In this document: positions 14,584 to 57,382 of the stretch, one piece after another
How positions within the stretch are numbered: position 1 is the stretch's first letter
Layout of the letters: each line of letters starts with the position of its first letter
Source: Dehalococcoidales bacterium
GTDB taxonomy: Bacteria; Chloroflexota; Dehalococcoidia; Dehalococcoidales; UBA2162
Direction of reading: 5' to 3'
Length of the DNA: 57,382 nt
Assembly (NCBI GenBank): GCA_016932435.1
Contig: JAFGCW010000023.1
Coordinates: forward strand, 1-57,382
Notes under the pieces: generated by a model
The model's input: the letters and a program-made list of their open reading frames with translations, nothing else
Told to the model about the DNA's origin: nothing
The model's database searches: none
Translations under genes and position numbers: made by a program

Positions 14584-15642
14584 ATGCTTGCTCAACGGCT
14601 CGATGACAATCCAATCCTGAAACCAAAGAGGAATCACCTGTGGTAATCCGTCGCAGTTTTTAACGGATGCCCGGTACGGAAAGGCAGAGAAGTCTTCATG
14701 GCGTATCGCGCTCTGTCCCTGCCATATTATAGTGTACTCACTGATGCCACCCTTCCCGTTTCCAGTGTGGGTCTCGCAAGAAGCACAGATGGTATACATT
14801 TTTCCAGGTGCAGACGGTTTATTTTCCCGGAATACGGCTGGGAGCGCTTTGGATGTGAAGACCCCCGGGTAATAAAACTTGACGACAAGTATTATTTCTT
14901 CTATACAGCATTATCTACATGGCCACCGACCGCCGATGGGATCAAGGTAGGACTGGCACTAAGCAGAGACTTGAAGAAGGTCGATGAGAAGTACCTGGTA
15001 ACACCCTTTAACGCCAAGGCAATGGCTCTTTTCCCCGAGAAGATTAATAACAAGATATATTCAGTGCTTACCATTAATACCGACCGACCGCCGGTAAAAA
15101 TATGTCTGGCTGTCTTTGACAGGGAAGAAGATATCTGGCCGCAAGATTACTGGCGAGAATGGTACAAGAAACCAAAACTCTTCGAATTGTCTCTGAGATC
15201 CGGACAGAATGATCATTTCGAGGTTGGTGCTCCTCCCGTGAAAACAAAAGATGGCTGGCTTATGTTGTTCAGTTATATTAAAGACTATTTCTCGAAAACA
15301 AGAGGAATATTGTTCGAGGTACAGGCTGTTCTTCTGGATCCGGAAAATCCTTTAAAAATAATTGGCAGAATGGAAATACCACTATTAATTCCAGAAGAAT
15401 ACTATGAGAAATTTGGTATGATGCCCAATGTCATTTTCCCTTCCGGCGGTCTTACCAGGAAAAACTATTATCACCTGTACTACGGTGCAGCAGATACTAC
15501 TTGCTGCACCGCTTCCATAAGGCTTCCTGCATTGCTAGGAATACTCCAGAACAAGGAGCCGATAGTGAATTACCCTGTGCCAAAAGCACAGGGTAATTCA
15601 CAAACCTGGAATATCTCCTGTAAGATAAGGTTGGATATATAA
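14584..15642 (+). pseudogene. second GH130-family gene, interrupted by an in-frame TAA
   Basis: From ATG 14584 the frame gives MLAQRLDDNPILKPKRNHLW, a normal GH130 N-terminus, and then hits TAA at 14644-14646. The same frame continues without a break (SVAVFNGCPV ... MAYRALS) to 15642. Aligned with the upstream paralogue (SWWESRQTFNPAAV), the TAA sits exactly where Glu stands, so a single GAA-to-TAA change explains it. Catalytic features downstream are intact: GCEDPR, ALFPEK and the closing blade. A 314-residue product could still start at ATG 14698, but it would lack the first strand of the propeller. The last 30 residues run into the inverted repeat and the RHS remnant, so the natural end is also lost. 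Confidence 0.75.
15565..15601. repeat. perfect 16-bp inverted repeat
   Basis: GTGAATTACCCTGTGC (15565-15580) and its exact reverse complement (15586-15601) flank the 5-base loop CAAAA. It lies at the junction between the end of the GH130 remnant and the end of the convergent RHS-type frame. Neither strand has a following T run, so it is not a standard intrinsic terminator. It may be a mobile palindromic unit or part of a rearrangement junction. Confidence 0.7.
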
Positions 15643-16569
15643 TCCCCAATATGCTGGTCTGGGACCACTTTGCCATAATGGAAGATTTACATAATATCTA
15701 ACATTGTCTTTTAACCATCTCTGCTTGACATCTCCTAACTGATTGCTTAGAGTACTTCCGTCAAGAGAAAATATCAAATTAAAATCTACCGCCAACGCTT
15801 CCGTCACAGATATATTAAAATCTGCTGGTTTTGGATCGTATCCCAGTTGACGCAATACATGAAATTGAACCTGATAGTTACCACTCTCCTCCAATATTGA
15901 ATTTTCACCTTTGTCTGTATCACAAATCGCATGCCCGATCTCATGGGCAGTATTACCAATAATTATTTCTAAATGATTATTCGTTACAATATCATTACCA
16001 TATGTCGGGTTTTTATACATGTTATTTATAATAATAGTATTAGAATCCGATACGTATTCCCCACCTCCTGATGTTTGTCCGAATTTGATCGTGTATAAAG
16101 TATCGTTTTCAATAAGGTAGTTCGTTGCTTCTCCAATAATTGTACTAACTTGTGTCCAGTTATAGAATAATGCAAACATATCAGGATCACTACGTATGAC
16201 ATTACTCATACCGTTCAAGGTCCATGGATCTAAATATTGCATATTTTTATCGAAAACAATAGTTACTACGTCAGAAGAAAAACCTACAGCATGCCCACTC
16301 GGATCTATATATTTAAGTGGATTATTCAGGCAAAAGGAATACCTTTTAAAGGATTGAGGCTTTGCAGGATTAGATACTATAGTATCCGCACTGATAAACC
16401 TGCCAATCACAGGATCATAGTACCTGGCACCGTAGTAGTACAGCCCGGTATCATCGTAATGTTGGCCTGTGAAGAGCCTGTCCGTAGGCATTTCGGAAGC
16501 ACTTTCTAACCACTCTCCATAGGGATAATATTCTATACTGCTTATCTCATCTCCTTCATCATCGGTCAT
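15598..16569 (-). pseudogene. C-terminal remnant of an RHS-repeat surface protein
   Basis: The first 85 residues are a textbook RHS core end: YYGARYYDPVIGRFISADTI, then YSFCLNNPLKYIDPSGH. They are preceded by EYYPYGEW. About 230 residues of variable C-terminal domain follow, with a metallopeptidase-like HEIGH-type site in NTAHEIGHAICDTDKG, so the tip may be a zincin toxin or peptidase module. The open frame extends upstream of the ATG (HILCYVDQDRLTGTSL), as expected inside an RHS gene, but meets a stop at 16762. No YD repeats or N-terminal delivery domain are present. This is therefore the 3' part of a much larger gene, whose natural end is at 15598. Confidence 0.75.
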
Positions 16570-16985: not shown

Positions 16986-17015
16986 TTGACAAATATTGGT
17001 CGGTCTACATATACT
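16986..17015 (+). promoter_or_regulatory. strong sigma-70-type promoter for the UGSC (seleno)protein gene
   Basis: A perfect -35 TTGACA (16986-16991), an 18-base spacer and TATACT (17010-17015, 5 of 6 matches) lie 32 bases before the ATG at 17048. GGAGGG at 17037-17042 is the ribosome binding site. The intact promoter and ribosome binding site argue that the gene with the internal TGA is expressed and not a decayed remnant. Confidence 0.65.
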
Positions 17016-17047: not shown

Positions 17048-18799
17048 ATGGCGGAAATATATAAATGTCTCAATCCGGTCGGTATGCAGCCACCTGTTAA
17101 ACAATCTGCGCTGGCGCCGAGACTCGATACTCTTGATGGGAAGACAATTCACCTCAGTATCTGTGGTGAAATGGATATCTGGGTTCCCCTTGAGAAAAAA
17201 CTGAAGGCAGAATATCCGAGTATTAATTTCACAGTAAAGAAAGGTTATACTCCAAATCCGATCCCTTTATCGGAGGAGGAGAGGAAAACTACCGATGGTG
17301 TAATACTGGGAGTTTGCTGGTGACATGGTGCAGTAGAAAGGCAGTTGCCTTATCTGGCTGAACTTGAACGAGGTGGGATTCCTACTGTACTCCTTGGCTA
17401 CACAGAAGAGACTGGAAAAGTCAGGAATGATTCCGTATTACACGGTATCCCACAGTTGCGGTATGTTGAAGCTTCACGTAATTCTCTGGGCGGAGTTACT
17501 GAAGCCGAAAAAGTCTTACCGTTGTTGCTTGAAAGTCTCACCCGTCCTTTAACAGAAAAAGAACAGGAGAGTAGTCTCTGGGCTCCTGCCGAACCGAGGA
17601 TACTTTTTGAAGGGACTCTCGAAGAAGCCGAGGAGTTCTATAATCAGAGTGAAAATATTCCGGGACTGGGTAATACTCCATTTTCCCTGTATACGGATGG
17701 GTTACCAGTGGTTATTCCCACTGAGGAACGCGTGGAAAAAATGCTGAAAGGAACCAGCCATAAACCCGATGAAATTATAACTTACCAGCGTGACATGGAG
17801 ATGCGAGGTCCGATGGGCTTTGGGGTACCCAGGAACAAAGGCGACGTGGTAAGGTTTATGCCTATGGAGAGGGTAGGCACGGTAGAACAGGTAGCTGTCA
17901 ATGCCGTGATGGCTGGCTGCAAACCGGAATATTTCCCTGTGGTACTGGCTATTACCGAGTCGGCAACCTGGGGTGGTCGTGGCAATGGCGGGGCCTATAT
18001 TGTTAGTGGTCCTATCTATAAAGAAATTGGTATGAATGTAAGTTACAGCAGATTCGGTCCTGGCAACCAGCCAAACAAGACCATCGGCCGTGTCGGCAGC
18101 CTTCTGTTACGCAATCTGGGAGGCTTTAAAGACAGTGTCACCGCAGTGTCTGTGACTACGACTTATAACAGTCCTGTTACTAATGGCGGCTTTATTTTTG
18201 CCGAATATGCAGAAGGATTGCCCGAAGGCTGGAAAGGTCTTAACGAGGAGATGAATTTCGGCAAGGATGAGAGTATTATCATGACCTGTATGCCCGGATC
18301 ATGGGGGATCGGCCAGCAGCATATGCCCGGCGTGTATCGTTCATTACAGAGAACGGGACACGGAGCTATAGCCAGATTCCTGGATGTGAAGGGCATTCCC
18401 GGACCGCATAATTACCTTGAGTATCTGACTAAAGGTATCTGGGCTACCAGAGAAGGCGGTTTTACTTTAATCCTGGTACCCCAGATGGCTCAGGACCTGT
18501 ATGATTATGGATTCAAGACCAAAGAGTCGATATACGAATGGATATGGAAAAAGAGCTTCGAACCACTACGGGATTACCGCATGCGTGGAATAGGTGACTT
18601 GACTACAGATGGCTGGACGGGAATAGAAAAAACATCCGGTAAACACTGGAAAGAGTTGTCTGACGACTATATGATACCGGTTGGTGGAGAAAACCCGTTT
18701 GACAGTTACTGTATTATCGTCTGTGATGGGATGGAGACCGCAGCCGACAGGTTTACAGGTGGTCACGGCCAGGCATACAGCGTGGATGCGTGGAGATAG
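17048..18799 (+). CDS. UGSC-family (seleno)protein with in-frame UGA, predicted Sec92
   Basis: One frame runs from ATG 17048 to TAG at 18797-18799, broken only by TGA at 17321-17323. Read through, it gives 583 residues, against 591 and 582 in two uninterrupted paralogues in this window. The TGA follows GVCW and aligns with the U of the UGSC motif in this family (GVGDUGSC-like), and with Leu and Asn in the paralogues. A SECIS-like hairpin follows the codon. Residues about 15-190 are the thioredoxin-like or alpha/beta UGSC domain. About 200-583 is a conserved C-terminal domain of unknown function (TDGLPVVIPTEERVEKMLKG). The active site would be Cys90-Trp-Sec92. A tautomerase gene follows. The alternative is a recent nonsense mutation. 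The reaction is unknown; a redox or reductive role is inferred. Confidence 0.8.
17324..17356 (+). promoter_or_regulatory. candidate bacterial SECIS element
   Basis: Immediately after the in-frame TGA, AAGGC-AGTT-GCCTT (17338-17351) forms a 5-bp stem with a tetraloop 20-23 bases after the codon. A lower stem CAG/CTG (17331-17333 with 17354-17356) closes an internal loop that includes a U. The apical loop has G as its second base followed by U, as bacterial SelB-binding hairpins require. The spacing is in the known range. No folding energy was computed. Confidence 0.55.
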
Positions 18800-18854: not shown

Positions 18855-19040
18855 ATGCCCTTAGTAACAGTAAAAGTATTAGAAGGTAAAACGATCGAGC
18901 AGAAAAGAGCTTTAGTAAAAGATATAATCGAAGCAGTTGTAAAGGACTTTGAAGTCCCGGTAAGTGCCGTAACAATTGATATTGTTGATTTAAGCAAAGA
19001 AAATTTGGCTATTGGTGGGACATTATTCACTGATCGTTAA
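18855..19040 (+). CDS. 4-oxalocrotonate tautomerase-family enzyme
   Basis: A 61-residue protein of normal 4-OT length. The start is placed at ATG 18855 because this makes Pro the first residue of the mature chain (MPLVTVKVLEG). The amino-terminal proline is the general base of this family. GAGGTGA at 18843-18849 is the ribosome binding site. An upstream in-frame ATG (18831) would bury the proline. The family interconverts enol and keto forms of oxoacids as small homo-oligomers. The gene follows the UGSC selenoprotein gene by 55 bases, so an operon is likely and a shared catabolic role is possible. Confidence 0.85.
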   Translation: MPLVTVKVLEGKTIEQKRALVKDIIEAVVKDFEVPVSAVTIDIVDLSKENLAIGGTLFTDR

Positions 19041-36289: not shown

Positions 36290-37627
36290 TTACTTATAAA
36301 CACCGTATTCCTGGGCTGCCTCGATCATTGCGTGTAAACAGGCTGGGTCGCATTTATCAGGACCGGATCCCAATGACAGGATATAGCCGCCGTTTTCACC
36401 ACAGACCTCGATGAGCTTGCGGCAGTATTCTTTAATTTCCTGCGGCGAATGAGTGTACAGTTGCGCTGCGGTCACGTTACCCGTGATACAGGCTGAATCG
36501 CCCAGTATTTCCTTTGCCTTGAACATATCCGTTTGTTCCATATTCCAGACCACAGAGGAACGAGGCAGGTCGCTGATAATCTCCAGTCGGGCTTCATCGT
36601 ATCTCCCATCGATCACCATCCAGGGAACACAACCTTCATTCACCAGTCCCAGGAGGAGTTTTCGGAATGTCGGCCAGTAAAATGTTTCGAACTGTTTAAC
36701 GGACATGAAGCTGACATCTCCCTTATGCATGGGTATCAGGACGATTGGACTGCGTGCCATGTCTGTCATCTGAACTGCCGACCTGACCGCCCGTTCAACA
36801 ATAGCCTCCAGTGTTTCCAGCACTTTTTCCGGCTGGCGGTACATGTCAACCGTGATACCGCGGGTACCTCGCAGCGAGTCGGCAATGGTGTCATAGGGTG
36901 CCTGTGCCATGCCACCGACAAAAGGAGGAAATCCCGATTCCAGCGATACCTGAGCGCATTCTCTGATGACTTGCTGGTATATCGTATTCTCCTCGCTGGC
37001 TTCCCAGATGGCTTTGAACAGTTTTACAAACGCGGGATCCTGGCACATTGCCATAAGTCTCTGAGGAAGACCCTGGTATGAAGAAAGCGGAGGAATGTGT
37101 GACAGAAGTTCAAAGGCACCCCATGTCCGAGGGGTAAAGTATCGCGTCCCGAAATCGAACGGATCATTTACAAAGAGGTCATACTCATCTGCCTGCATGT
37201 ACTCTCTTTCGACGAAATTCTGGATACTGGCGCTGTCCGGGAGTCCGCCTCCCGGCCATTTCATCGATCTGTAATCGAGTATCTCATAAACACGGGCTGG
37301 GAAAAATCCGGGGATATCATTCGAATCCTGGTCGTAGTCGTTGAGCCATTTCTTCCAGGCCGGCATTATCTTCGAGTAGTCGTAGATGACATCTTTTAAA
37401 GTGAATCCGGCGTTATAGGCGATTATCCCGCCACTCGTCAGGTGTACAGGAACACGGTCCGGAATTTCCATCTTAATGGTTTTTATCATACGGGTAGCAC
37501 GTTCACGATACTTCTGTTCCGCTTCCTGACTGCTGAAGGAAATATCTTCGGCTGAAAGCCATTTTTCAAATCGTTTTTCGCGTTTTTCCTGCCAGGTCAT
37601 TTCAGACCATTGTTGTTCCGTGTTCAC
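36290..37627 (-). CDS. uroporphyrinogen decarboxylase-family protein (MtaA/methyltransferase-like)
   Basis: A 445-residue URO-D superfamily TIM-barrel protein. It has IPDRVPVHLTSGG (about 56-68), AGFTLKDVIYDY and the late segments VPWMVIDGR and GGYILSLGSGPDKCDP. It is unlike HemE, being longer and with an N-terminal helical extension, and resembles the methylcobamide:coenzyme M or corrinoid-protein methyltransferase group. No corrinoid-binding protein or reductive activator lies next to it, so a demethylase system cannot be confirmed. It belongs to the minus-strand operon of 32542-43072. Confidence 0.8.
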   Translation of the reverse strand: MNTEQQWSEMTWQEKREKRFEKWLSAEDISFSSQEAEQKYRERATRMIKTIKMEIPDRVPVHLTSGGIIAYNAGFTLKDVIYDYSKIMPAWKKWLNDYDQDSNDIPGFFPARVYEILDYRSMKWPGGGLPDSASIQNFVEREYMQADEYDLFVNDPFDFGTRYFTPRTWGAFELLSHIPPLSSYQGLPQRLMAMCQDPAFVKLFKAIWEASEENTIYQQVIRECAQVSLESGFPPFVGGMAQAPYDTIADSLRGTRGITVDMYRQPEKVLETLEAIVERAVRSAVQMTDMARSPIVLIPMHKGDVSFMSVKQFETFYWPTFRKLLLGLVNEGCVPWMVIDGRYDEARLEIISDLPRSSVVWNMEQTDMFKAKEILGDSACITGNVTAAQLYTHSPQEIKEYCRKLIEVCGENGGYILSLGSGPDKCDPACLHAMIEAAQEYGVYK

Positions 37628-37662
37628 TCGTTAGTCTCCTGTTTCCCACTGTCGCTAGTATT

Positions 37663-38529
37663 TTATTCCAGGTTCAGTAATGCTGAAGGATTTTTTTTCA
37701 CCATGAGTTCTACCTCCTCCGGGGAAATTCCATGGTGGAGCAGTGTAGCGATGAATAATCTCATCCCTTCCACGGGGATCGGATTCTGAGGCTGGCCCAA
37801 GTCGGTACTGACGATACAGTGTTCGGCACCGATGGATTTAATTACCTTTACCAGGTCTGCCGGATGATGGCAGAATTCGTTCGGAAGTATCCCTATAATA
37901 GTAAATTCCATAAACACCCCGGTCTTTGCCAGCTGCTGCATTTCTTCAAGAGTCAGTACCTTTTCCATGAATTCTTTGTCTGTCGGATGGGTGACGATTA
38001 TTTTCTTGATTCCGATTCCCTGCGCCTCTTCGACTAACGCAAATATTTCCTGAGGAGAGATATGACCGGTAGCCAGTACGATATTTTTCTCTTTAATCAG
38101 CGACAGTATCGGCGCGATATCCGGCACCAGATTTCCTTTGTCGTCCAGAATTGAGAAACCTTCACCCTTGGCCGGAAATCCCTGTGCTCTCATCATGTTG
38201 ATGGAATTTGCTGAAGAAAATGTCGGCATCCACACTACCTTGGCTCCCAGCATGACCGCGTTCTCTACCGCGTGCGCGTTTATACCACCGACTTCATAAT
38301 TGAGACAGATACTTCCGATAATTTCGATATCCGGTACCATCCGATTTACGAGTGCTGCTACTGCAGCGGTATAGCTGTGACTCTTGTAGACGAGAGCCTT
38401 CATTCCTGCCTGTTGTGCCTGCTGAGCCGCTTCTATTACATCTACTCGAGCCGGACCTTTGGTAATTCCCGGATGTAAGTGCATGTCTATCGAGTCGGTT
38501 AGATACTCATCTACGTTTATAAAACTCAC
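37663..38529 (-). CDS. DUF6282-like metal-dependent hydrolase (amidohydrolase superfamily)
   Basis: A 288-residue TIM-barrel protein. The N-terminal metal motif is SIDMHLHPG (HxH), then VYKSHSY, the fifth-strand His in LATGHISPQE, the sixth-strand His in VTHPTDKEF and the last Asp in STDLGQ. This is the full ligand set of the amidohydrolase superfamily. The family is uncharacterised. It would hydrolyse a lactone, amide or ester C-X bond. A close paralogue is at 52626 in the opposite-strand operon, and the two differ little in motifs. Confidence 0.8.
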   Translation of the reverse strand: MSFINVDEYLTDSIDMHLHPGITKGPARVDVIEAAQQAQQAGMKALVYKSHSYTAAVAALVNRMVPDIEIIGSICLNYEVGGINAHAVENAVMLGAKVVWMPTFSSANSINMMRAQGFPAKGEGFSILDDKGNLVPDIAPILSLIKEKNIVLATGHISPQEIFALVEEAQGIGIKKIIVTHPTDKEFMEKVLTLEEMQQLAKTGVFMEFTIIGILPNEFCHHPADLVKVIKSIGAEHCIVSTDLGQPQNPIPVEGMRLFIATLLHHGISPEEVELMVKKNPSALLNLE

Positions 38530-38616
38530 TATAATACTCCTCGCGGCAATCGGAGAATCGGTAGCACGAGTTAATCGAATCTCTGGTTGCCACTCTGGCT
38601 ACTTAGACTGGAAAAC

Positions 38617-39663
38617 TTATTTTCTTGACCTTATCCCTTTGGCGTAATTCACCCTGCCTACCCAGAATTCCTCGTCATCTTCTCTCGGGGTTACACCTAT
38701 AGCTTTCAATCCTGCTCTCATCGCCTGCCTTGCCTGATGGGGGATTCTGGAACCCGGTTGTCTGAACAGACCACCGTTACCACCGGCCAGCCAGTCCAGG
38801 TATTTGATTCCTAGATACCCTCCACCACTTTGGTATAAAGCTACCTTCATTGCGTTCATATGTATCGGGGATAATTCCCAGTAGAGGTCCATTGCCTGGT
38901 CAAACTCACCCTGCATGAACAGGTTGAACAGTTTGACGATGCGGCTTTCGGTAAAATCCTCTCCGTCATAGATAACGTATTTCCCCGGACCTGCCCACTG
39001 CTGCTTATATTTCGGGATCGTGATCGGCCACTCTTCCGGTTCGCCTGACTGTTGCAGGATCTGATCACCTACCAGGTGGTGTATCTGGGCCATTTTCCCG
39101 TAGCCGTCAGCGATATATATTTTGGCTGCAACGACATTCGGTATTTCCGCTATCCGTGCGACCAGGTGAGGATTGAAATGACTCGGGTGGAATCTGCCGA
39201 AGTCGAAGATAGGCTTAGGCCAGAAGTCTACGCAAAGGTTCACAGAATCGCATATCTTTTTAGTTATCTGATAAATATCCTCTTCATCTTTGGCATAGAA
39301 GTTACCCGGGTAACCGAAAAGCGTGTGTGTCCCGCCGACTTTTTCGAAATGTTTGAGTAGTTCGATATCCTGCTCGACATCATCGATACCGGTAGTTACC
39401 GATACCAGTATTTTGCCCTTGGCTTCGTCGCAGACGATCTCCATGAACCGTTTCCGTTCCTCAAAGGTCATAACGGCGATCATCGTTTCACAGAGTATAC
39501 TGAACATCCCCTTGCGAATGTTGTGCTGGACATCCCACCTGATACCTTCCTCGTCCAACTCCGTGAGATCCGGGGTGAAAGAAGGAGCGACAGCTCCGTC
39601 CAGACCATGATAATTCTTTCGCGCCCATTCTTTTGCTTCTGATTTGGTATATTCCAAAGCCAT
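38617..39663 (-). CDS. dihydrodipicolinate synthase-family aldolase/lyase, paralogue with Trp in place of Tyr
   Basis: Start taken at ATG 39663 because AAGGAG stands seven bases before it. The earlier in-frame ATG adds a tail with no ribosome binding site. The 348-residue TIM-barrel protein keeps the Schiff-base Lys181 (IPNVVAAKIYI), but the Tyr of the usual Y-x-P/Y-N-P site is Trp148 (VDFWPKPIF). The GTTGE substrate loop is replaced by CETMIAVMTFEER. The motif FDFGRFHPSHF and the length of about 350 resemble the hydratase-aldolase subgroup (trans-o-hydroxybenzylidenepyruvate type) more than DapA. It probably cleaves a pyruvate adduct or has lost part of the activity. It is the second of two adjacent paralogues. 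Confidence 0.82.
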   Translation of the reverse strand: MALEYTKSEAKEWARKNYHGLDGAVAPSFTPDLTELDEEGIRWDVQHNIRKGMFSILCETMIAVMTFEERKRFMEIVCDEAKGKILVSVTTGIDDVEQDIELLKHFEKVGGTHTLFGYPGNFYAKDEEDIYQITKKICDSVNLCVDFWPKPIFDFGRFHPSHFNPHLVARIAEIPNVVAAKIYIADGYGKMAQIHHLVGDQILQQSGEPEEWPITIPKYKQQWAGPGKYVIYDGEDFTESRIVKLFNLFMQGEFDQAMDLYWELSPIHMNAMKVALYQSGGGYLGIKYLDWLAGGNGGLFRQPGSRIPHQARQAMRAGLKAIGVTPREDDEEFWVGRVNYAKGIRSRK

Positions 39664-39710
39664 TTTTTTCTCCTTATCTGAAAACAAATATAATTTTATA
39701 TATCAGCAGG

Positions 39711-40772
39711 TTAATACTGCTTTAACCGCGCGCCCTTGGAGTAATTAACTCTTCCTACGAAAAATTCCTCCTCGTTATCGCGAAGAGGAACACCAAGCCC
39801 TCTCAGTCGGGCTCTGATTCCATCTTTATGGTAGTCATACAGCCGTTGCCCCATCGGCTGCCGTACCATACCGCCGTTGCCTCCGAGAAGCCACTGAGCA
39901 TACTTATCCGGCAGGGTGCCGACGATCCCTGTGTTGAAATATGAATCCGAACTTCCTCCAAGGTTTACCCCAGCCGGAACAGCGCTCATGAAGTCCCAGT
40001 ACATCTTCATCGCTTCATCGATCTTACCTTCAACAAAGAGGTTGAACATGTTTACCATCTTTGGGTTGTCAGGAGTCTGAGATACATCATACGGTCCCGC
40101 GCCTGCCCATTGCTGTCCGTATTGACCGACCGTGATAGGCCAGTTCATCTGTACGGGATCGTTAACCAGTACCCTGTCTCCGATAAGGCGGAACGACTCA
40201 TACATGAAGCCAATCGGTCCACCTCCGCAAAGCTTCATTCCCACGACATTCGGGATATCAGCTATTTTATCAAGAACGGTCAGCGGGAAATAACTCGGGT
40301 GCATATGCTTGACATGGAGTCTGCCGGCGTAAAAATTGACGGCGATATTGGTTGCATCGCACATTAGCTTGTAGTGCCGGTAAAGCTCTTCTTCTGAGTG
40401 GGGGTAAAATTGTACGGGATGGCCGATTAAAGCAAAAGAACCGCCGACTTTCTCGAAATGTGCCAGCATCTCCAGGTCTTCCTCAACAGTGTTCTGCAGG
40501 ATGGTCATCGATACATGTATTTTATCTTTGGCTTCGTCACAGACTATCTTCACAAATTGCTTGCGTTCTTCGAAGGTCATCGCGCTGGCTTCGACGGCGC
40601 AGAGGATACAGCTTAACTTGTTGGCTATCAAGTAGTTTACATCCCACCTGATGCCTTCCTCATCCAGTCCCGAAAGATCCGGTGTGTAAGACGCATGAAT
40701 TACTCCTTCCAGTCCCTTCAGATTTTCCTTAGCCCATTGTTTTGCTTCTGCTTTGGTATATTCCAATGCCAT
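39711..40772 (-). CDS. dihydrodipicolinate synthase-family aldolase/lyase
   Basis: A 353-residue DapA-fold protein. The Schiff-base Lys180 is in VVGMKLCGG and Tyr148 in VNFYAGRL. The substrate loop is CAVEASAMTFEER, not GTTGE, so it is not a DapA. The length and the HVKHMHPSYF segment fit the hydratase-aldolase branch, which makes or splits pyruvate adducts. GAAAGGAGA precedes the ATG. It is 47 bases from the paralogue at 38617 and 59 from the UGSC-like gene on the same strand. Substrate unknown. Confidence 0.85.
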   Translation of the reverse strand: MALEYTKAEAKQWAKENLKGLEGVIHASYTPDLSGLDEEGIRWDVNYLIANKLSCILCAVEASAMTFEERKQFVKIVCDEAKDKIHVSMTILQNTVEEDLEMLAHFEKVGGSFALIGHPVQFYPHSEEELYRHYKLMCDATNIAVNFYAGRLHVKHMHPSYFPLTVLDKIADIPNVVGMKLCGGGPIGFMYESFRLIGDRVLVNDPVQMNWPITVGQYGQQWAGAGPYDVSQTPDNPKMVNMFNLFVEGKIDEAMKMYWDFMSAVPAGVNLGGSSDSYFNTGIVGTLPDKYAQWLLGGNGGMVRQPMGQRLYDYHKDGIRARLRGLGVPLRDNEEEFFVGRVNYSKGARLKQY

Positions 40773-40831
40773 GGTGTTCTCCTTTCATTTAGAAACAACA
40801 ATACTCAAGTAAATTATTTCCTCGATACTGA

Positions 40832-42607
40832 TTATCTCCATTTATCTATTGACGCATTTGCCATACACCGGAAATCTCCTGCCATCCAGAACGCATCGGT
40901 TCCACCGCCAATGACCAGCATCTCTACCGGTGAATTTTTCGTTATCAACGGGTATTCTGTCTTTCCTTCCGGAGGAAGCTTCAGCCAGGAAGCATACGGT
41001 TCAACCCCGGCTTTTGCGGATTCCAGATCTTTCGGCATAGCTGCCCAGTAGGTCCAGGCAGACATTCGGGCATTGTCCTTGATCCACTCTCCCAGCTGTT
41101 CTTTACTGTCGAATCCTTCATTTTTAAGATCGTTTGCTGTTATCGGACTCACCAGGAATGTTGCCTGTGTTCCCGGATTCAGATTCAGTGTATGATGAGT
41201 CCCGGCTCCGCTGGTTTCAAAACTTACAAGCTGGTTAGCCATGATCTCGTGATGAGGGTGAGGTTTATAAGCTGCGTAGTTCAGCAGGCTCCATCCGCCC
41301 AGTATACTGATTACACTTTCTTCTGGTTTAAATCCCTTCTGCACGTGTAGAGGAATCCATCCTTCAGGAAGTGCTTCTTCATTTTCCGCGCAACAGAGGT
41401 TGTTGTAATTAGTACTGTTGCCAAGATCCCCCAGGTATGATTCGCCGAGTATCGCTCCACCCAGGTTCTTCGATATAAGTGTCCAGGCTCTTCCGATGAC
41501 AGCATTAGCCTGGTTGAAGGGGCCAAGAGCACTCAAACCTGAATTCATGTTTATCTCTTTGCATATCGGTCCATTGGCTACGACCATTCTGCACATTGAG
41601 GTAGCGGAACTGAATAACGAGGTGACACCGGTAGAAGCGATAGCCAGAATCACTGGTAAATGTTCCTTCTTCGCTCCGGCCATGACAGCATTAACAGCGA
41701 CATGCTCTACGGTATATTCCCATGCTTCGTGAGGAGGTGATGGCTGCATCACTACTGGTACATCCTCCTTTTCCTCTCCTCGTGAACCTGAGCCAAGTCG
41801 CTCTAACGAGCGCTCCCAAGCTTCATTGGGAGGAATTGGCTGCATCCTACCGATTATTTCATCGGGTTTATGGCTTGTTCCCTTCAGCATCTCGGCTACC
41901 CGTTCCTCGGTGGGAAGTATGATTGGGAGGCCATCGGTCCATCCGTTTTCAAGGAAGAGCTGCTCAAGGTTTTCAGGGGCGTCCGGTTCCAGCAATCTCG
42001 GCATCGATCTTTCTATTGTGCCTGTTTTCTTTTCTGCTTCGGTCGTCGGTCTTGTAAGAGCATCGATTATTCCGGTGATAACAGGTCTGTTATTTATCGG
42101 ATCATTGCCTTCAAGATATTTCCTGTGCACTTCAATGGATCTATTGGCAAAAGGATGAGGAACAAAGGTAAATCTCAGTCCGGAGATCCCTTTTTTATAG
42201 GCAAATTTCCTTGTCAGGTCAGGGAATGCCTGGGTGATTACAGGAGCGGTAGGCAATCCCATGCTCTCAAGTATAGAGCAAAAAATAATGACCGATGGTG
42301 AGCAGGTATCAAGCTGACCGATGCCTATTATGACACCGTTACCTTTTTCCTTTATCTCAGCCCACAGGTCCGGATCATTATTAAAGTATGTACCTGTTTT
42401 TACTCTGAGTTCGAAATTCGTCTCAGGATATCTGCCGGACAGTAATGTTTGCATCTCCTCCCAGAACTGGTGGGTTCTGGGGAAATTCATGTCTACGATA
42501 TATACGGTTTTACCTTTTAAAGTATCAATGCGGGAAGCCATAGGAACCATATGTATCGACGGAGGGATGCCACGCGGGTTCATTACCGTGATTTTTTCAT
42601 TTGGCAT
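40832..42607 (-). CDS. UGSC-family protein, non-selenocysteine paralogue
   Basis: A 591-residue two-domain protein, collinear with the TGA-containing gene at 17048. It opens NPRGIPPS...MASRIDTLKGKTVYIVD. The motif region reads GIGQLDTC: Leu replaces the U of UGSC, while the Cys of the motif is kept. The C-terminal domain (about 205-591) has WTDGLPIILPTEERVAEMLK and VNAVMAGAKKEHLPV. A 30-residue Pro/Glu-rich insert follows (about 245-275). With U replaced by Leu it may bind substrate without redox chemistry or pair with another subunit. It lies between the SnoaL-like and DapA-like genes of the operon. Confidence 0.85.
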   Translation of the reverse strand: MPNEKITVMNPRGIPPSIHMVPMASRIDTLKGKTVYIVDMNFPRTHQFWEEMQTLLSGRYPETNFELRVKTGTYFNNDPDLWAEIKEKGNGVIIGIGQLDTCSPSVIIFCSILESMGLPTAPVITQAFPDLTRKFAYKKGISGLRFTFVPHPFANRSIEVHRKYLEGNDPINNRPVITGIIDALTRPTTEAEKKTGTIERSMPRLLEPDAPENLEQLFLENGWTDGLPIILPTEERVAEMLKGTSHKPDEIIGRMQPIPPNEAWERSLERLGSGSRGEEKEDVPVVMQPSPPHEAWEYTVEHVAVNAVMAGAKKEHLPVILAIASTGVTSLFSSATSMCRMVVANGPICKEINMNSGLSALGPFNQANAVIGRAWTLISKNLGGAILGESYLGDLGNSTNYNNLCCAENEEALPEGWIPLHVQKGFKPEESVISILGGWSLLNYAAYKPHPHHEIMANQLVSFETSGAGTHHTLNLNPGTQATFLVSPITANDLKNEGFDSKEQLGEWIKDNARMSAWTYWAAMPKDLESAKAGVEPYASWLKLPPEGKTEYPLITKNSPVEMLVIGGGTDAFWMAGDFRCMANASIDKWR

Positions 42608-42628
42608 GTTACTCTTATCCCTTCCTGA

Positions 42629-43072
42629 TTATTCGTCGCTATTAGTGTCCATCCCGTAAATCTGGCATAAGGTAGCTACTTTTTGAGGGTGTGTTTCAAG
42701 GAAAACTCGTGCCTTTGTTATCTTCAGATCTCCGTTATCATCGATTTTAAGGTTATATAATGTATTCATCTTTATCTCAAGCAGCACTTTTCCTGTCGAT
42801 CGTTGAATAGCCCGTGCGGTAAGTAATGCACCAACTTCATTCTGTTTCTCATCGATGAAAAGGTGTTCCAGTGTTAATTTGTCCTGGATGTCGGTATGGC
42901 TGAGACATGCTTCATACCACTGTTCACGGCTGGTCACCATATCATCGAACGACAGTTCGGGAGCGTAAAACTTATCCATAATGCCATGGGTCTCCGCGAC
43001 CTGGCCTTCTTCGCTATAAGCCTTGACGTACTCGTTCATAAAACGGACGATTTCATCATACCTGGATTCCAT
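42629..43072 (-). CDS. SnoaL-like/NTF2-fold small protein
   Basis: A 147-residue alpha+beta protein. The N-terminal helices include YDEIVRFMNEYVKAYSE, a strand motif MDKFYAPELSFDD follows, and then the long curved sheet EVGALLTARAI / KVLLEIKMNTLYNL. This is the fold of SnoaL, ketosteroid isomerase and NTF2 proteins. A paralogue with the same MDKYYA..LSFPEDMV pattern lies at 53507. It could be an isomerase, a hydratase or the small subunit of an oxygenase-like enzyme. It is the first gene of the minus-strand operon, and the candidate MarR operator lies about 56 bases upstream of its start. Confidence 0.75.
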   Translation of the reverse strand: MESRYDEIVRFMNEYVKAYSEEGQVAETHGIMDKFYAPELSFDDMVTSREQWYEACLSHTDIQDKLTLEHLFIDEKQNEVGALLTARAIQRSTGKVLLEIKMNTLYNLKIDDNGDLKITKARVFLETHPQKVATLCQIYGMDTNSDE

Positions 43073-43127
43073 CTTTATACTCCTATATTTTATTGATTAT
43101 GGCGTATTGGTATAGTTATTGTGTATG

Positions 43128-43173
43128 ATACGATATCGTATACGTCTATAACTTACGATATGATACGTTATCG
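43128..43173 (-). promoter_or_regulatory. MarR-type operator cluster upstream of the catabolic operon
   Basis: A perfect 14-bp palindrome, ATACGATATCGTAT (43128-43141), lies 55 bases before the SnoaL-like start. A second related site, TACGATAT plus GATACGTTATCG, follows at 43154-43173. The word ATATCGTA or its complement occurs in both and recurs near 30.03, 30.07, 46.556 and 46.58 kb. The MarR gene ends 110 bases to the right. I infer that this protein represses the operon through these sites. Confidence 0.5.
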
Positions 43174-43283
43174 GTGTATCAATTACAAGGTAGAGAAAGA
43201 AAAGAAACCGGAAAAAGAAAGAGCCATAGTCGCGTATATTCTGTAATGGCTCGTTGACCTGTCAGGTACCGAATACGGTGTTC

Positions 43284-43760
43284 CTATGGGAAGGGAGGAA
43301 GCTCTACCTGCAAGCTTGCTTCATACGCGATAGCTTTATTTCGCAGTTTGGTGATGATCTCTTTAAACTGATTTTTTTCTTCATCTGTCAGGACGGACAT
43401 CATATCGTATAACGAGTCTCCGACGTTGGAATGAACGTAAGCTTCTTTACCTTTTTCGGTTAAACTGATGATCCATGTATTTTTTCTTTCGCGACTTTTT
43501 GTTCTCTTAACCAACTCTTTATTTTCCATCCTTTTCAATAAAGCCGTTACCGAATGATGCTGCCGTAACATGCTTTTTGAAATCGTGGCAGGTGTTGCTT
43601 TATCTCCGATAACATGGATGACATGTAATGCTCCGGCTTCAACGGCGGTCAGTCCCCGGTTACTCAGTTCGTTGTCTCTTACCCGCAGTATTGTGTCCCG
43701 TGTCTGGCACAACAGAATCCATATAGTATGTTCAAGATCGGTTAGTGATGCGTTATCCAT
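43284..43760 (-). CDS. MarR-family transcriptional regulator
   Basis: A 158-residue winged-helix regulator. The sequence LTAVEAGALHVIHVIG with PATISKSMLRQHHSVTALLKR (helix-turn-helix, recognition helix with HHSVTALL) and the wing ELVKRTKSRERKNTWIISLTEKGKEA match MarR proteins, which bind DNA as dimers and release it on meeting a phenolic or aromatic ligand. It lies between two divergent blocks of the island and next to the palindromic operator cluster, so it is the likely local regulator. Its own promoter region (43761-43959) includes AT-rich palindromic DNA. Confidence 0.9.
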   Translation of the reverse strand: MDNASLTDLEHTIWILLCQTRDTILRVRDNELSNRGLTAVEAGALHVIHVIGDKATPATISKSMLRQHHSVTALLKRMENKELVKRTKSRERKNTWIISLTEKGKEAYVHSNVGDSLYDMMSVLTDEEKNQFKEIITKLRNKAIAYEASLQVELPPFP

Positions 43761-43959
43761 TTACTTTATCTCCCAATACTTTAACGTTATAAGGCGTGAT
43801 TAACCCCTGTTAATGTAAATACCAGAACACTATCCACTTATCATAGCACTTTAACGCAAGCGAACGAAATTCTAATTACTTGTTTGGGTTTCTTTCTATA
43901 TAAATTTTATATATACTGTCACATCGAGGTGATATAGTATAACCCTCGTCGCTCTAACC

Positions 43960-45177
43960 TTAATCTAAAGCGCCACTATTAAATAGATCGATAAACTCAT
44001 CATCGGATATTCCAAGTATTTCACGGCACACATACTCGGTATGTTCGCCCAGGCAAGGTGCTGCCTTGCGAACTTCAACTGATGAATTTGATAATTTGAA
44101 AGGCGGGTTGCTGTAAGAGGAAGGACCGATCTCCGTGTGATCCAGCATCGGATAAAAATCACGAGCTTTTAGCTGTGGATTTTTACTCAGGTCTTCGCCA
44201 TTGGAGACAACACCGGCTGCAATCCCGGCATTCTGCATCTTGTCCGAAATAACTTCAGGGGAAAACCGGAGTGTCCATTCTTCGATGAGAGTGTCGAGTC
44301 GGTCTTCATTCTCTTTCCGGCCGATGATAGTAGCTAACGATGGATCCATCGTCCATGATGGGGTTCCCAGAACCCGGCAGAAAGATTGCCATTCTCCGTC
44401 AGTAAATACAGCGATGGCACACCACCTGTCATCACCTTTACAACGATAGCAACCGTGCGGGACAGCATGGAGTTCACGATTTGCTATCTGGTGCATATTT
44501 TCTCCGTTGGCAGAATACTGTAGTACCGCCGGTGCCAGAAAGTGTATCCCGGCTTCAAGCTGAGAATGATCGATATACTGACCTTTGCCTGTTCTTTTTC
44601 GATAGTCCAGAGCTGCCAGCAAGGCAGTGATCAGCCACTGGATGGAAACCATGTCTGTGTATGCTCCAAAAGGTCCCATCGGGCTTCCATCACCATAGCC
44701 GGTGAGTTGATGATATCCGGCGATGGCGGCTGTTTGTACTCCGAATCCTTTATATCGCGCCAGCGGTCCTTCCCTGCCCATCTGATTCGTGCTGAGCATT
44801 ATTATCCCGGGATTTAGTACTCTCACGTTATCGTAATCCAGACCGAATTTATCGATCATACCCGGGACATTGCTTTCGATAAATATATCAGCCCATTTGA
44901 CCAGTCGTTTCATCAGATCCAATCCTTCCGGTTTCGAAAGATCGAGACTCATGCCCAGTTTGTCCGGATTATACCGGTGGAAATAAGCGGCGCGGTTGAT
45001 CCCCGGAATATTATCCTGGTAAGGATAAGAGGTTCTCATGAAATCGAGGCGCTTCTGGCTTTCCACGTGTACAACGGTCGCCCCGGCACTGCCGAGAAAC
45101 CGGGCAACTCCCGGACCGACGATGACGCGGGTCAATTCCAGTACTTTCAAATCTTTTAAGGGAAGATTCTTTTCCAT
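43960..45177 (-). CDS. CaiB/BaiF-family CoA-transferase, catalytic subunit
   Basis: A 405-residue class III CoA-transferase. The catalytic Asp175 stands in GAYTDMVS, with the family signatures VLELTRVIVGPGVARFL, NPDKLGMSLDL (KLGMSLDL), DIFIESNVPG and GYHQLTG. The enzyme moves CoA between carboxylic acids through a mixed anhydride on this Asp. Its ATG directly follows the stop codon of the 45178 gene (TAG-ATG), so the two are translationally coupled. It probably activates the pathway acid as a CoA thioester together with the neighbouring subunit. Confidence 0.92.
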   Translation of the reverse strand: MEKNLPLKDLKVLELTRVIVGPGVARFLGSAGATVVHVESQKRLDFMRTSYPYQDNIPGINRAAYFHRYNPDKLGMSLDLSKPEGLDLMKRLVKWADIFIESNVPGMIDKFGLDYDNVRVLNPGIIMLSTNQMGREGPLARYKGFGVQTAAIAGYHQLTGYGDGSPMGPFGAYTDMVSIQWLITALLAALDYRKRTGKGQYIDHSQLEAGIHFLAPAVLQYSANGENMHQIANRELHAVPHGCYRCKGDDRWCAIAVFTDGEWQSFCRVLGTPSWTMDPSLATIIGRKENEDRLDTLIEEWTLRFSPEVISDKMQNAGIAAGVVSNGEDLSKNPQLKARDFYPMLDHTEIGPSSYSNPPFKLSNSSVEVRKAAPCLGEHTEYVCREILGISDDEFIDLFNSGALD

Positions 45178-46419
45178 CTAGATAATTCCAGCCTGTTTCA
45201 ACGTTATAAGCTCATTAGTGGCGATACCTAATTCACCACGGTAAATGTCTATATTGTGTTCACCTATAAGGGGCGCCCGATGTCTGACAATCACCGGGGT
45301 TTCACTCATCTTCACGAACGGTCCTGGATAGGTGATTGTTTCGTTCAGTTCGTTGTGCTCAATATCGGCCCAGAACTCACGACTTTTCAACTGAGGATTA
45401 TCCAGCAAGTCTCCGGTATCGTTAACCGGAGCAAGAAACAGTTCGTTCTCCATTGCCCAGTCGAAAAGCTGCTTCTTCGTCTTATCAAGTAAAAACGGAG
45501 CAACGGCATCCGCAAGGTCGTCGAAGAATTGTTGCTCGACGTTGGCTACATCGAGTTTTGCCCAGTCGAATCCTCTTAACCAGTCCGGACATTTTCCTTC
45601 GGCTTCCATCCACTCAACCATCTTGTATTCACCGATTGTTGCCATGGTCCCGCCGAGAAGGAACATCAGTACATAACCGTCTTTGCAGTCAAATATCAAT
45701 CGCATTCGCGAAAGACCCTGCTGCCGCCACGTTCCTTCCCGCTTCAGGAGCAGATTCGAATAAGACCACCACTCCGCGGCGCTGTAATTTGACCATGCGG
45801 CAGCTTCAAGCATAGATACATCCACATATTGCCCTTCTCCTGATATTGTGCGTCCTGTGAGGGCTATCATTGCTCCGGCTGCTGCCCACGCACCGGCGTG
45901 GAAGTATATCTGCGGTACCGGAATACGCAGCGGCTGTTCGCCCGGTTCACCGCTAAGGAAAACAAGCCCGCCCAGAGACATCTCTACCAAGTCAGAACCC
46001 TTGAAATCACGCCAGGGCCCTGTCTGCCCGAAAGGAGTGATCGAGGTCATTACCAGTCTGGGATTGATCTGACTGAGGACATCATAACCCAGTCCGAGTT
46101 TTTCCATATAGCCCGGATGATACGATTCAAAGAGAAAATCTGCAGTCTTTACCAGTCGTTTCAACAGTTCCTGCCCGTCAGCAGTCTTAATATCCAGAGT
46201 GATGCTGCGTTTATTGGAGTTTAGCGTAAACCATGTGAGACTCTTTTCAGGGTGAGGGATATCGTGATAGAAGGGCCCCAGCCTTCTTGCCGGATTCCCT
46301 TCCGGTGGTTCGATCACAATGGTATCAGCTCCAAGATCAGCAAGTATCCGTGAAGCCAGCAGCCCGTTTTCATCGGTCAGATCGAGTATCCGGTATGGAC
46401 TTAAGGAGCTTTGCTTCAT
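45178..46419 (-). CDS. CaiB/BaiF-family CoA-transferase-like subunit without the catalytic Asp
   Basis: A 413-residue CaiB/BaiF fold protein. Motifs are RILDLTDENGLLASRILADLG, NSNKRSITLDIKT, ESYHPGYMEKLGL and GQYVDVSMLEA. At the catalytic position it has IYFHAGAWAA (about 171-180), with Tyr172 where the partner has Asp. The fold and CoA loops are kept, but the acyl-anhydride step cannot occur here. Such an Asp-less partner is expected in heteromeric class III transferases, of which BbsEF is the known case. The overlapping stop/start with the active paralogue supports a complex. Confidence 0.85.
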   Translation of the reverse strand: MKQSSLSPYRILDLTDENGLLASRILADLGADTIVIEPPEGNPARRLGPFYHDIPHPEKSLTWFTLNSNKRSITLDIKTADGQELLKRLVKTADFLFESYHPGYMEKLGLGYDVLSQINPRLVMTSITPFGQTGPWRDFKGSDLVEMSLGGLVFLSGEPGEQPLRIPVPQIYFHAGAWAAAGAMIALTGRTISGEGQYVDVSMLEAAAWSNYSAAEWWSYSNLLLKREGTWRQQGLSRMRLIFDCKDGYVLMFLLGGTMATIGEYKMVEWMEAEGKCPDWLRGFDWAKLDVANVEQQFFDDLADAVAPFLLDKTKKQLFDWAMENELFLAPVNDTGDLLDNPQLKSREFWADIEHNELNETITYPGPFVKMSETPVIVRHRAPLIGEHNIDIYRGELGIATNELITLKQAGII

Positions 46420-46543
46420 ACTATTACGAATATTCTTTTCAATAAGTCACCATATTTTACCACTGATATTCACTGCTCGGAACCAAACCTGTGAAGAACC
46501 CGATGAAAACTACGATTTCTGGTTTAAAAACAGCTGTAAATAA

Positions 46544-55509: not shown

Positions 55510-57258
55510 TTAACGTCCTGATCTGGTTAACGTAGCGTCTTTTATCAATTTTGTCATATGTGCAGTGCGGAAGTAAGAGAAACCGAATGTATAACCCGGG
55601 ATACTGCCGGACACGATGATATGAATATCTTCCGGATTTACCACCGGTACCTTTTTCCCCGGTTTGAGTGAATCCAGTATTACCGGGATCCGGTCTTCAG
55701 GAACGGCGTCATGGGGGAAGAAAATATCAATATCGGGAGGTTTGGAATTTATCCTGTCGTGGATACCCTGGATCTCCTGCTGTGTCAGATCTTCGAAGGG
55801 TACCATGGCACTTTCATAAAGGTAGTCCCGCAGGCTTTGTTTACTGTTGTAGCCAAGACGCTGCAGCATAATTGCAAATTCCGGATGGACTATGATGATA
55901 TGTTTTCTCAGATGAGCACCGGGGTTGGCCACACCGAGTTTATATGCACCCCATACCAACCGATCTCGTGCAACATCGTTAACTATATCTTTGAGTACCG
56001 GTTCGGTATCCCATGGCTCTACTACTCCTCCGCCGTATATTCTCGTCATACCACTCATAACAGTATCCACCGTCACACAACTGTCTTCCCGTTTGTAGCC
56101 AAGTCCTTCGTTGAACGATTCCCATGGACTCTCATCGATATTTTCAGCAAAGGTATAGAAGGTATGCGGAGAGGGACGTCCAATAAGTGCCATATCGATC
56201 TCTCCCGGCCAGAGGTAGCCCAGGTTGATCAAACACAATCTTACTGCGCGGCCTATCGTATTATTTGCCCGCCAACCGTGCCCCAGTAATCCTACACCAG
56301 AATTCATGTCCAGTTCTTTACCGAGAGGACCGCTGACCATGATCATAAGTGTGAAAGATCCTTCGGAAGCCATCATATGAGTATAGGTACCTTCTTCTGT
56401 AAGACATTCCATGACCGATAAAATCACAGGCAAGTACTCAGGTTTAGCTCCTGCCATTACCGCATTGACTGCTATCTTTTTTACCGTAGCGATACCGTTC
56501 CTATACGGTACTTTTCCAATAACTTCATCAGGAAGACGAGAAGTTCCTTCTAACATTCGTTGAACCGCCGTTTCAGTCGGTGGTATCAAAGGCAGACCGT
56601 CACTCCAGTGGTTTTCCATATAATTCTGGTTGAACATCTCCAGAGCAGATTCATAGTCATCAGCGGTGACTTCTACCGATTCAACCTGCTTTTCACGGGT
56701 TTTAAGATCAGGATTTTTCTCTTCTGCTGACAGGGGACGGGTTAACGCGTCGATTATTTCATCAAGAGCGGCTTCAGCTACGGGCATAATGTTTGCAACC
56801 GTTGATCGGTTGGGATAATAGTCAATCGAAGACAGGCTGACGATACGCAGTGTCGGCATTCCCATATCCTCGGCAGACATACGGGCAGTATGGGTAGCAT
56901 TATCTCCGACGACAAACACCCCCGGTTTACCAAGTTTTTCCAGGGCAACTACCTGAACGCACTGGATCCATCCTCCCATGCCGTTGTCACCAACCCCGTA
57001 AATAAAGGTATCCATCTCTCGTTTCGCGTTTTCTGCGGCTTCTGCATTACCCCATACAAGACGGGTGGTTTTCGCTGTCGGGTATCTTTCTTTCAGCAGT
57101 TCGTCTACGGCATCTAGGAAATTATCACCGCCTTTCTTTCCATCCCATATTATGGCGATATTCTTTCCTGCCAGGTCGTTAACGCGGGGATTGGAAAGTC
57201 CAGTGGGTGGAGGGACGTTAAATACGCCTTTAGGATTAAGACAGTTAAAGGTTATCAT
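55510..57258 (-). CDS. UGSC-family protein, third paralogue
   Basis: The start is taken at ATG 57258, with AAGGAAG seven bases upstream. This gives 582 residues, the length of the other two members, whereas a longer frame adds a weak 19-residue tail. It opens MITFNCLNPKG as does the 17048 protein (IYKCLNPVG). The motif region reads GVGDNGMGG: Asn replaces U, and no Cys is left of UGSC. The C-terminal domain shows SDGLPLIPPTETAVQRMLEG and VNAVMAGAKPEYLPVIL. A redox-silent form is implied. It lies upstream of the carboxylesterase on the same strand and is the last gene of the window. Confidence 0.85.
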   Translation of the reverse strand: MITFNCLNPKGVFNVPPPTGLSNPRVNDLAGKNIAIIWDGKKGGDNFLDAVDELLKERYPTAKTTRLVWGNAEAAENAKREMDTFIYGVGDNGMGGWIQCVQVVALEKLGKPGVFVVGDNATHTARMSAEDMGMPTLRIVSLSSIDYYPNRSTVANIMPVAEAALDEIIDALTRPLSAEEKNPDLKTREKQVESVEVTADDYESALEMFNQNYMENHWSDGLPLIPPTETAVQRMLEGTSRLPDEVIGKVPYRNGIATVKKIAVNAVMAGAKPEYLPVILSVMECLTEEGTYTHMMASEGSFTLMIMVSGPLGKELDMNSGVGLLGHGWRANNTIGRAVRLCLINLGYLWPGEIDMALIGRPSPHTFYTFAENIDESPWESFNEGLGYKREDSCVTVDTVMSGMTRIYGGGVVEPWDTEPVLKDIVNDVARDRLVWGAYKLGVANPGAHLRKHIIIVHPEFAIMLQRLGYNSKQSLRDYLYESAMVPFEDLTQQEIQGIHDRINSKPPDIDIFFPHDAVPEDRIPVILDSLKPGKKVPVVNPEDIHIIVSGSIPGYTFGFSYFRTAHMTKLIKDATLTRSGR

Positions 57259-57382
57259 TTGCTTCTTCCTTTGATTTAATGATTTACAGCATGCTTTGTC
57301 ATATGACATATCCACTCGACAAAGTATATTGATTGTTGTTAAACAGCGGCAGCAATTGCCATGTCCGATAAGCGCTGATAGG
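57259..57382. other. upstream region of the last gene
   Basis: The 124 bases before the last start codon contain the ribosome binding site AAGGAAG and an AT-rich stretch, but no ATATCGTA-type operator and no clear -35/-10 pair. The gene or genes to the right are outside the window. Confidence 0.3.

What the first reader, a model, noticed from the sequence alone, without database searches (positions are those of the whole stretch)
17048..18799. UGSC-family gene read through an in-frame TGA as a selenoprotein
The frame from 17048 to 18799 is open except for TGA 17321-17323. Three points favour recoding over decay: read-through length (583) matches two paralogues (591, 582), the TGA falls exactly at the U of the UGSC motif, and a good promoter and ribosome binding site precede the gene. 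Reading GVCW-Sec gives a Cys-x-Sec pair, which is not the canonical UGSC arrangement, and the C-terminal half is a fused domain of unknown function.
Basis: partly seen in the sequence, partly recalled or inferred. Interest (0 to 1): 0.88.

Follow-up and report, generated by a model that had tools for sequence, protein, structure and literature searches.

The report
Expanded selenoprotein family in uncultured Dehalococcoidia
A gene that looks broken by a stop codon almost certainly makes a selenium-containing enzyme, and it belongs to an unannotated group of such genes present in many copies in some uncultured Dehalococcoidia bacteria.

Summary
In detail: 17048-18799 is open except for TGA 17321-17323, at the Sec column of UGSC relatives. 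Recoding to selenocysteine is strongly supported. (1) In three related MAGs plus the window, 49 reading frames form one clade with this TGA, and no TGA-less frame falls inside it. (2) Codons after the TGA are fixed (Leu TTG 47 of 47, background 13%) and form a hairpin with compensatory changes; a model trained on two genomes finds 15 of 15 held-out copies, and only 17321-17362 in the window. (3) selA, selB, selD and tRNA-Sec occur in 3 of 3 related genomes; the window's own is not held. (4) Selection is equally purifying on both sides.

Cys-x-Sec is not conserved: Cys90 in 28 of 49. The clade motif is W-U-x-x-A, without the resolving Cys (0 of 49) but with invariant Cys291 in the fused domain (48 of 48).

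Beyond the finding: the MAGs carry 28, 22 and 13 TGA copies of the superfamily, and its Sec domain is homologous to glycine/proline reductase protein B (hhalign 96.5%). Function, inferred: Sec-dependent reductive cleavage. New variant of a known kind.

The parts
16986..17015 (+). promoter-like site TTGACA-18-TATACT
   Evidence: 11 of 12 consensus matches; 7 sites found in the region against 4.7 expected, so weak by itself
17048..18799 (+). selenoprotein gene, 583 residues with Sec92
17048..17572 (+). N-terminal UGSC / GrdB-like alpha/beta domain (residues 1-175)
   Evidence: PF24696, 24.7 bits, residues 7-142; model; hhalign to GrdB/PrdB-like profile
17321..17323 (+). UGA codon for Sec92
17315..17320 (+). 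Cys90 (variable in the clade) and Trp91 (48 Trp, 1 Phe of 49)
17321..17362 (+). SECIS-type element; apical hairpin 17338-17351 (AAGGC-AGTT-GCCTT), loop AGUU 17343-17346
   Evidence: GGCAGTTGCC occurs once in the window, at 17340
17573..18796 (+). fused C-terminal domain (residues 176-583), no fold assigned
17918..17920 (+). codon of Cys291, invariant in the clade
   Evidence: 48 of 48 (one copy has a gap); 1 of 13 in UxxC copies of the same genomes (two have a gap)
40832..42607 (-). paralogue with Leu at the Sec column (motif QLDTC)
55510..57315 (-). paralogue with Asn at the Sec column (motif GDNGMG)

Best explanation
The gene is intact and encodes a 583-residue selenoprotein. The ribosome reads UGA 17321-17323 as selenocysteine, with SelB and tRNA-Sec(UCA) recruited by a SECIS-type hairpin whose AGUU loop lies about 20-23 nt after the UGA (supported by comparison; no protein data). 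Sec92 sits after a central beta strand and before a helix of an alpha/beta domain that is homologous to the Sec domain of GrdB/PrdB, selenoprotein B of glycine and D-proline reductase (profile evidence). Inferred function, about 0.4: Sec attacks an electrophilic centre of a small organic substrate held between the two domains, so that a bond is cleaved reductively in anaerobic catabolism. The oxidised or substituted Sec is released by Cys291 of the C-terminal domain, which replaces the missing Cys of UxxC. Paralogues would then serve different substrates. The confidence below is for the decoding claim.
For: Codon: 64 of 72 matched frames (three MAGs and window) have exactly one TGA, each at the U column; 49 have Trp or Phe before it and form one clade, and the 8 TGA-less frames lie outside it. 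The 49 were picked as TGA frames, so '49 of 49' is not an independent count; the tree is. RNA: Leu TTG 47/47 (background 13%), Arg AGG 33/33 (20%), Gln CAG 49/49 (78%). Pair 19-30 is A-U in 31 and G-C in 14 copies; covariation score 0.208 against 0.158 in shuffles, 0 of 500 reach it. Hold-out model: 15 of 15 held-out copies (weakest E 0.015), one other match (E 0.56) in 222,788 bases. Machinery: selB, tRNA-Sec with anticodon UCA, selD and selA in 3 of 3 genomes. Selection: window against its closest relative dN/dS 0.015/0.661 before and 0.018/0.596 after the TGA. TGA still ends 6 of 39 listed window reading frames. GrdB link: hhalign 96.5%, E 9e-10, 99 columns, Sec on Sec; 20 shuffled profiles at most 0.6%, 30 single window proteins at most 2.0%. 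Cys swap: Cys95 0 of 49 and Cys291 48 of 48, against 15 of 15 and 1 of 13 in the UxxC copies.
Against: The window's own genome is not held, so its Sec machinery was not tested. Minimum free energy alone is weak in this clade: mean z -0.58 and -0.72 against synonymous recoding, while control positions run from -0.50 to +0.42; for the window 19 of 200 shuffles fold as well. The lower stem is poorly kept: pairs 9-39, 15-33 and 14-34 do not form in 34, 26 and 20 of 49 copies, and partners slid by +1 have 8 pairs with two-sided changes against 7. I chose the structure from folds of these same sequences. The copies share descent, so codon and pair counts are not independent events. No protein evidence for selenium. 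For the GrdB link: the UGSC domain against GrdE, taken as a control, gave 16.1%, E 0.0016, above the other controls. The C-terminal domain shows no homology to GrdE/PrdA (0.1%); the Sec92-Cys291 distance could not be measured; some Acidobacteria UxxC copies have both Cys95 and Cys291. Neighbour genes differ from copy to copy.
Confidence: 0.9

Rival explanations
1. The Sec protein is a conventional thiol/selenol oxidoreductase in which Cys90 and Sec92 form a CxU redox pair.
For: Cys90 is present in the window and in 28 of 49 copies; CxU is listed for other selenoproteins, e.g. rhodanese-like form 3 and UshA-like (Table 1 of PMC13188914).
Against: 21 of 49 copies have A, V, S, T, I or L at residue 90. 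The predicted fold is not obviously thioredoxin-like (inconclusive).
Confidence: 0.12
2. Two separate products: a 91-residue peptide ending at the UGA and a 484-aa protein restarted downstream at TTG, as databases annotate it.
For: The 120 listed database proteins (of 5173 matches) begin after the TGA.
Against: Amino-acid change is equally low on both sides, a gene caller that stops at TGA can only place the start downstream, one fold spans the TGA (pTM 0.88), and the hairpin codons are fixed.
Confidence: 0.03
3. UGA is read as another amino acid (Trp or Cys) by a suppressor tRNA or changed code.
For: The frame is open under any sense reading.
Against: 6 of 39 listed window frames end in TGA; homologues have Cys, not Trp, at the column; relatives have tRNA-Sec and the hairpin is present.
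Confidence: 0.02
4. A decayed gene with a chance TGA.
For: One in-frame stop.
Against: The same TGA throughout the clade and strong purifying selection.
Confidence: 0.01

Closest known systems
UGSC family (seleno)protein, PF24696 / NF041046; also the UGSC/Unknown_1 fusion of the GOS survey (PMC2398784)
   Same: Homologous N-terminal domain, Sec at the same column; a fused second domain (whether it is Unknown_1 was not testable, the figure is not held)
   Different: W-U-x-x-A in place of UGSC/UxxC, no resolving Cys at +3, invariant Cys291 in the fused domain; scores below both curated cut-offs; 13-28 TGA copies of the superfamily per MAG against 33 UGSC selenoproteins in 26 organisms in the 2016 survey (Table 3 of PMC5029168, passages)
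GrdB/PrdB, selenoprotein B of glycine/betaine/sarcosine/D-proline reductase (PF07355)
   Same: The strand-Sec-helix-strand core and the pattern 'D-A-V-I ... U-x-x-C ... G-I-P-T' align, Sec on Sec
   Different: No direct Pfam match of the window protein to PF07355; the fused domain shows no relation to GrdE/PrdA, PF09338; the clade lacks the Cys of UxxC

Membership tests
Selenoprotein | In-frame UGA at a column occupied by Sec or Cys in homologues | tested here: met
Selenoprotein | SECIS-type stem-loop downstream of the UGA, conserved beyond the protein | tested here: met
   weak by energy alone and in the lower stem
Selenoprotein | selA, selB, selC, selD in the same genome | tested here: inconclusive
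   own genome not held; 3 of 3 related genomes have all four
Selenoprotein | Selenium in the protein | not testable with these tools
   needs mass spectrometry or 75Se labelling
UGSC family (PF24696 / NF041046) | Score over the curated cut-offs | tested here: not met
   24.7 of 25 bits and 16.1 of 125 bits; in G001 0 of 21 matches pass NF041046
UGSC family (PF24696 / NF041046) | U-x-x-C motif | tested here: not met
   U-H-G-A here; 0 of 49 clade copies have Cys at +3
UGSC family (PF24696 / NF041046) | Homologous domain with Sec/Cys at the same column | tested here: met
GrdB/PrdB (PF07355) | Homologous Sec core with Sec at the same place | tested here: met
GrdB/PrdB (PF07355) | Direct match to the family model | tested here: not met
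   only PF24696 at E up to 1; note that the PF07355 matches seen here end before the Sec
GrdB/PrdB (PF07355) | Second domain of GrdE/PrdA type (PF09338) | tested here: not met
   C-terminal domain against a profile of nine PF09338 proteins: 0.1%
GrdB/PrdB (PF07355) | Separate GrdE/PrdA partner gene | not tested
   not sought in the window or in G001-G003
Thioredoxin fold | Trx-like fold of the Sec domain, as suggested in PMC2398784 | tested here: inconclusive

The most novel reading that the evidence does not exclude
The W-U-x-x-A clade is a new class of single-chain, Sec-dependent reductive lyases or reductases, derived from the GrdB/PrdB/UGSC Sec domain and duplicated many times for different substrates in anaerobic Dehalococcoidia, comparable to the many reductive dehalogenases of Dehalococcoides (recalled). 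Its catalytic selenium is resolved by a Cys of another domain instead of UxxC.
Probability: 0.35. Interest if true: 0.88.

Novelty: new variant of a known kind. Interest (0 to 1): 0.72.

Why it matters
The 2016 survey of more than 5200 bacteria counted 33 UGSC selenoproteins in 26 organisms (PMC5029168, Table 3, passages); here three MAGs hold 63 TGA copies of this superfamily. The 120 listed database entries of the clade start after the TGA, so annotation appears to miss the Sec and the first 91 residues. The link to GrdB/PrdB offers a testable mechanism for UGSC proteins in place of the thioredoxin-fold suggestion, and a resolving Cys that may have moved into another domain would be unusual.

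Full report
Observation. The frame 17048-18799 on the + strand is open apart from TGA 17321-17323. Read through, it gives 583 residues with residue 92 at the TGA. The local sequence is ...DGVILGVCW-U-HGAVERQLPYL.... The product matches PF24696 (UGSC) at 24.7 bits against a cut-off of 25, and NF041046 at 16.1 against 125. Two paralogues in the window match PF24696 well over the cut-off, with Leu (QLDTC, 40832-42607 -) and Asn (GDNGMG, 55510-57315 -) at the column.

Conservation of the TGA. A search of about 5.8 billion proteins gave 5173 matches among 7998 scored candidates. The 120 listed are 466-496 aa long and cover 80-84% of the query, i.e. they start after the TGA; 37 of them were aligned and do. 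A scan of GTDB genomes kept 79 loci. Twelve of these, L001-L012, are 52-97% identical, come from three MAGs titled Dehalococcoidia, Chloroflexi and Dehalococcoidales, and carry 14 matched copies, all with TGA at the column. In the genomes behind them (G001, G002, G003) PF24696 has 34, 22 and 13 matches at E up to 1. After fetching, the TGA was found at the U column in 28 of 34, 22 of 22 and 13 of 13 matched reading frames, and in 1 of 3 in the window. In G001 one TGA-less gene is split over two frames, and some copies are cut by contig ends. Among the 351 of 378 G001 pairs with over 100 aligned residues, none is more than 89% identical, and selA, selB, selD and tRNA-Sec reach the cut-off once each there. 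A mixture of strains therefore does not easily explain the number, although it cannot be excluded for MAGs. G002 has two tRNA-Sec matches over the cut-off.

Two classes of Sec site. Of the 64 frames with one TGA, 15 have U-x-x-C (UGSC, USTC, UDGC, UPGC) and 49 have Trp or Phe before U (48 W, 1 F) and Ala or Thr at +3 (48 A, 1 T). The 49 were selected as TGA frames. The independent fact is that they form one group on a long branch of the tree and that the 8 TGA-less frames lie elsewhere (FastTree, midpoint root). Residue 90 is Cys in 28 of 49 and A, V, S, T, I or L otherwise, so Cys-x-Sec is not what the clade keeps. What it keeps is Cys291: 48 of 48 in the clade (one gap), 1 of 13 in the UxxC copies of the same genomes (two gaps), where it is usually Ala; Cys95 shows the reverse, 0 of 49 and 15 of 15. 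In the 38-row alignment of the window protein with 37 database proteins Cys291 is also invariant. Outside these genomes several Acidobacteria UxxC copies have both, so the two Cys are not strictly exclusive.

SECIS. In the clade the codons after the UGA are fixed beyond the protein: Arg AGG 33 of 33, Gln CAG 49 of 49, Leu TTG 47 of 47 and Pro CCT 32 of 45, against 20%, 78%, 13% and 19% in the same genes elsewhere. They form the hairpin (A/G)GGC-AGUU-GCC(U/C). Pair 19-30 is A-U in 31 and G-C in 14 copies; pair 21-28 is A-U in two copies and pair 20-29 A-U in one. The 12-pair structure, which I chose from folds of these sequences, has 80.3% of cells paired and a covariation score above all 500 shuffles; slid versions pair 29-48%. 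Against it: the lower stem is poorly kept (pairs 9-39, 15-33 and 14-34 fail in 34, 26 and 20 of 49 copies), a slide of +1 has 8 pairs with two-sided changes against 7, and a slide of +2 has a covariation score of 0.193 against 0.208. A covariance model built from the 34 copies of G002 and G003 was run over the window, the held-out G001 loci and overlapping loci, 222,788 bases. Its 22 matches at E up to 1 are the window element at 17321-17362 (E 1.6e-9, its only window match), all 14 G001 clade copies (weakest E 0.015), six duplicates of those in overlapping loci, and one other (E 0.56). Part of this signal is the conserved protein. Energy alone is weak for the clade (mean z -0.58 and -0.72; controls -0.50 to +0.42) but stronger for UxxC copies (-1.71 and -1.58; controls -0.35 to +0.77). 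From recall, the position of the loop G and U agrees with the fdhF SECIS of E. coli.

Machinery. selB, tRNA-Sec (ARAGORN: anticodon UCA), selD and selA are present in 3 of 3 genomes; selD itself has one in-frame TGA in each. In the 59 genomes behind the distant loci L013-L079, 40 of 43 with a TGA copy on the fetched loci have selB over the cut-off, against 10 of 16 without (Fisher p 0.009; data). Three genomes with TGA copies lack a full selB match (G504, G514, G516). No genome is held for the window itself.

Selection. Between the window and its closest relative dN and dS are 0.015 and 0.661 for the 88 codons before the TGA, and 0.018 and 0.596 for the 491 after it. Six further pairs show similar dN on both sides (0.154-0.220 before, 0.183-0.211 after); their dS is mostly saturated. 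The code is not changed: 6 of 39 window reading frames that I listed end in TGA.

Mechanism. Supported by data: conservation, hairpin, machinery in relatives, domain homology. Inferred: decoding in this organism, Sec as nucleophile in reductive cleavage, Cys291 as resolving residue, different substrates for different copies. Neighbours of the copies include a glycyl radical enzyme with its activase (L010), CoA-transferase III and a URO-D protein (L005), enoyl-CoA hydratase (L004), aldo/keto reductase (L008), a glyoxalase-domain protein (L001), MatE (L002, L003) and solute-binding proteins (L003, L005) (20 of 79 frames scanned). In the window a 4-oxalocrotonate tautomerase-like gene follows (18855-19040). 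This fits catabolism but names no substrate.

Literature. PMC2398784 (section 9 and passages read) describes UGSC proteins as abundant, probably Trx-like, and fused to Unknown_1; its Figure S1 is not held. PMC13188914 (section 7 parts 1-2, section 10, references part 2 and passages) lists UGSC with the motif UGSC and gives 57 and 63 selenoprotein genes as the largest bacterial sets. PMC5029168 (passages) gives 33 UGSC proteins in 26 organisms. PMC12013277 (term search) does not hold UGSC, Chloroflex or Dehalococc. PMC9312934 (passages) lists UGSC with UxxC. PMC9751293 (passages) reports glycine reductases in some Dehalococcoidia. Searches for UGSC, UGSC family, selenoprotein with Dehalococcoidia, selenoprotein with Chloroflexota and paralogs, and D-proline reductase with UGSC, judged from listings and these passages, showed nothing that describes the W-U-x-x-A clade, the expansion or the GrdB link; the library is limited to open licences.

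Verdict. The gene is a selenoprotein gene with high probability. It is a relative of the UGSC family that fails that family's curated cut-offs and motif, hence a new variant of a known kind.

Noticed in passing
L176-L179 (genomes G001-G003): Short PF07355 (GrdB/PrdB-like) frames end before an in-frame TGA with Cys at +3 or +4; the Pfam matches stop before the Sec. Further likely selenoproteins.
   Followed up: partly
L053, L077 (Actinomadura, Pseudonocardia), L037, L054, L074 and others: UGSC-fusion genes with TGA at the U column also in actinobacteria and alphaproteobacteria; over all distant loci 40 of 43 genomes with such a copy have selB.
   Followed up: partly
L016/L079 (G504), L027 (G514), L029/L046/L059/L071 (G516): TGA copies in genomes without a full selB match; perhaps incomplete MAGs.
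   Followed up: no
window 49147-52611: Glycyl radical enzyme (PFL-like), below the cut-offs of the 12 NCBIfam families it matches, followed by an activase over the cut-off of TIGR02494; a similar pair stands directly before a selenoprotein copy in L010.
   Followed up: partly
window 36290-49082: Catabolic-looking island with the Leu-type UGSC paralogue: URO-D-type (36290), DUF6282 (37663), DHDPS (39711), CoA-transferase III (45178) and FAS1-like dehydratase region (46664) matched by Pfam; 38617, 48018 and 43960 look like further DHDPS and CoA-transferase genes by eye only.
   Followed up: no
window 15598-16569 (-): RHS repeat-associated core domain in a 323-aa reading frame, perhaps the end of a larger Rhs gene.
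   Followed up: no
window 17048-18799 and relatives: Database entries for these genes are cut at the TGA: the 120 listed hits (of 5173) are 466-496 aa.
   Followed up: yes
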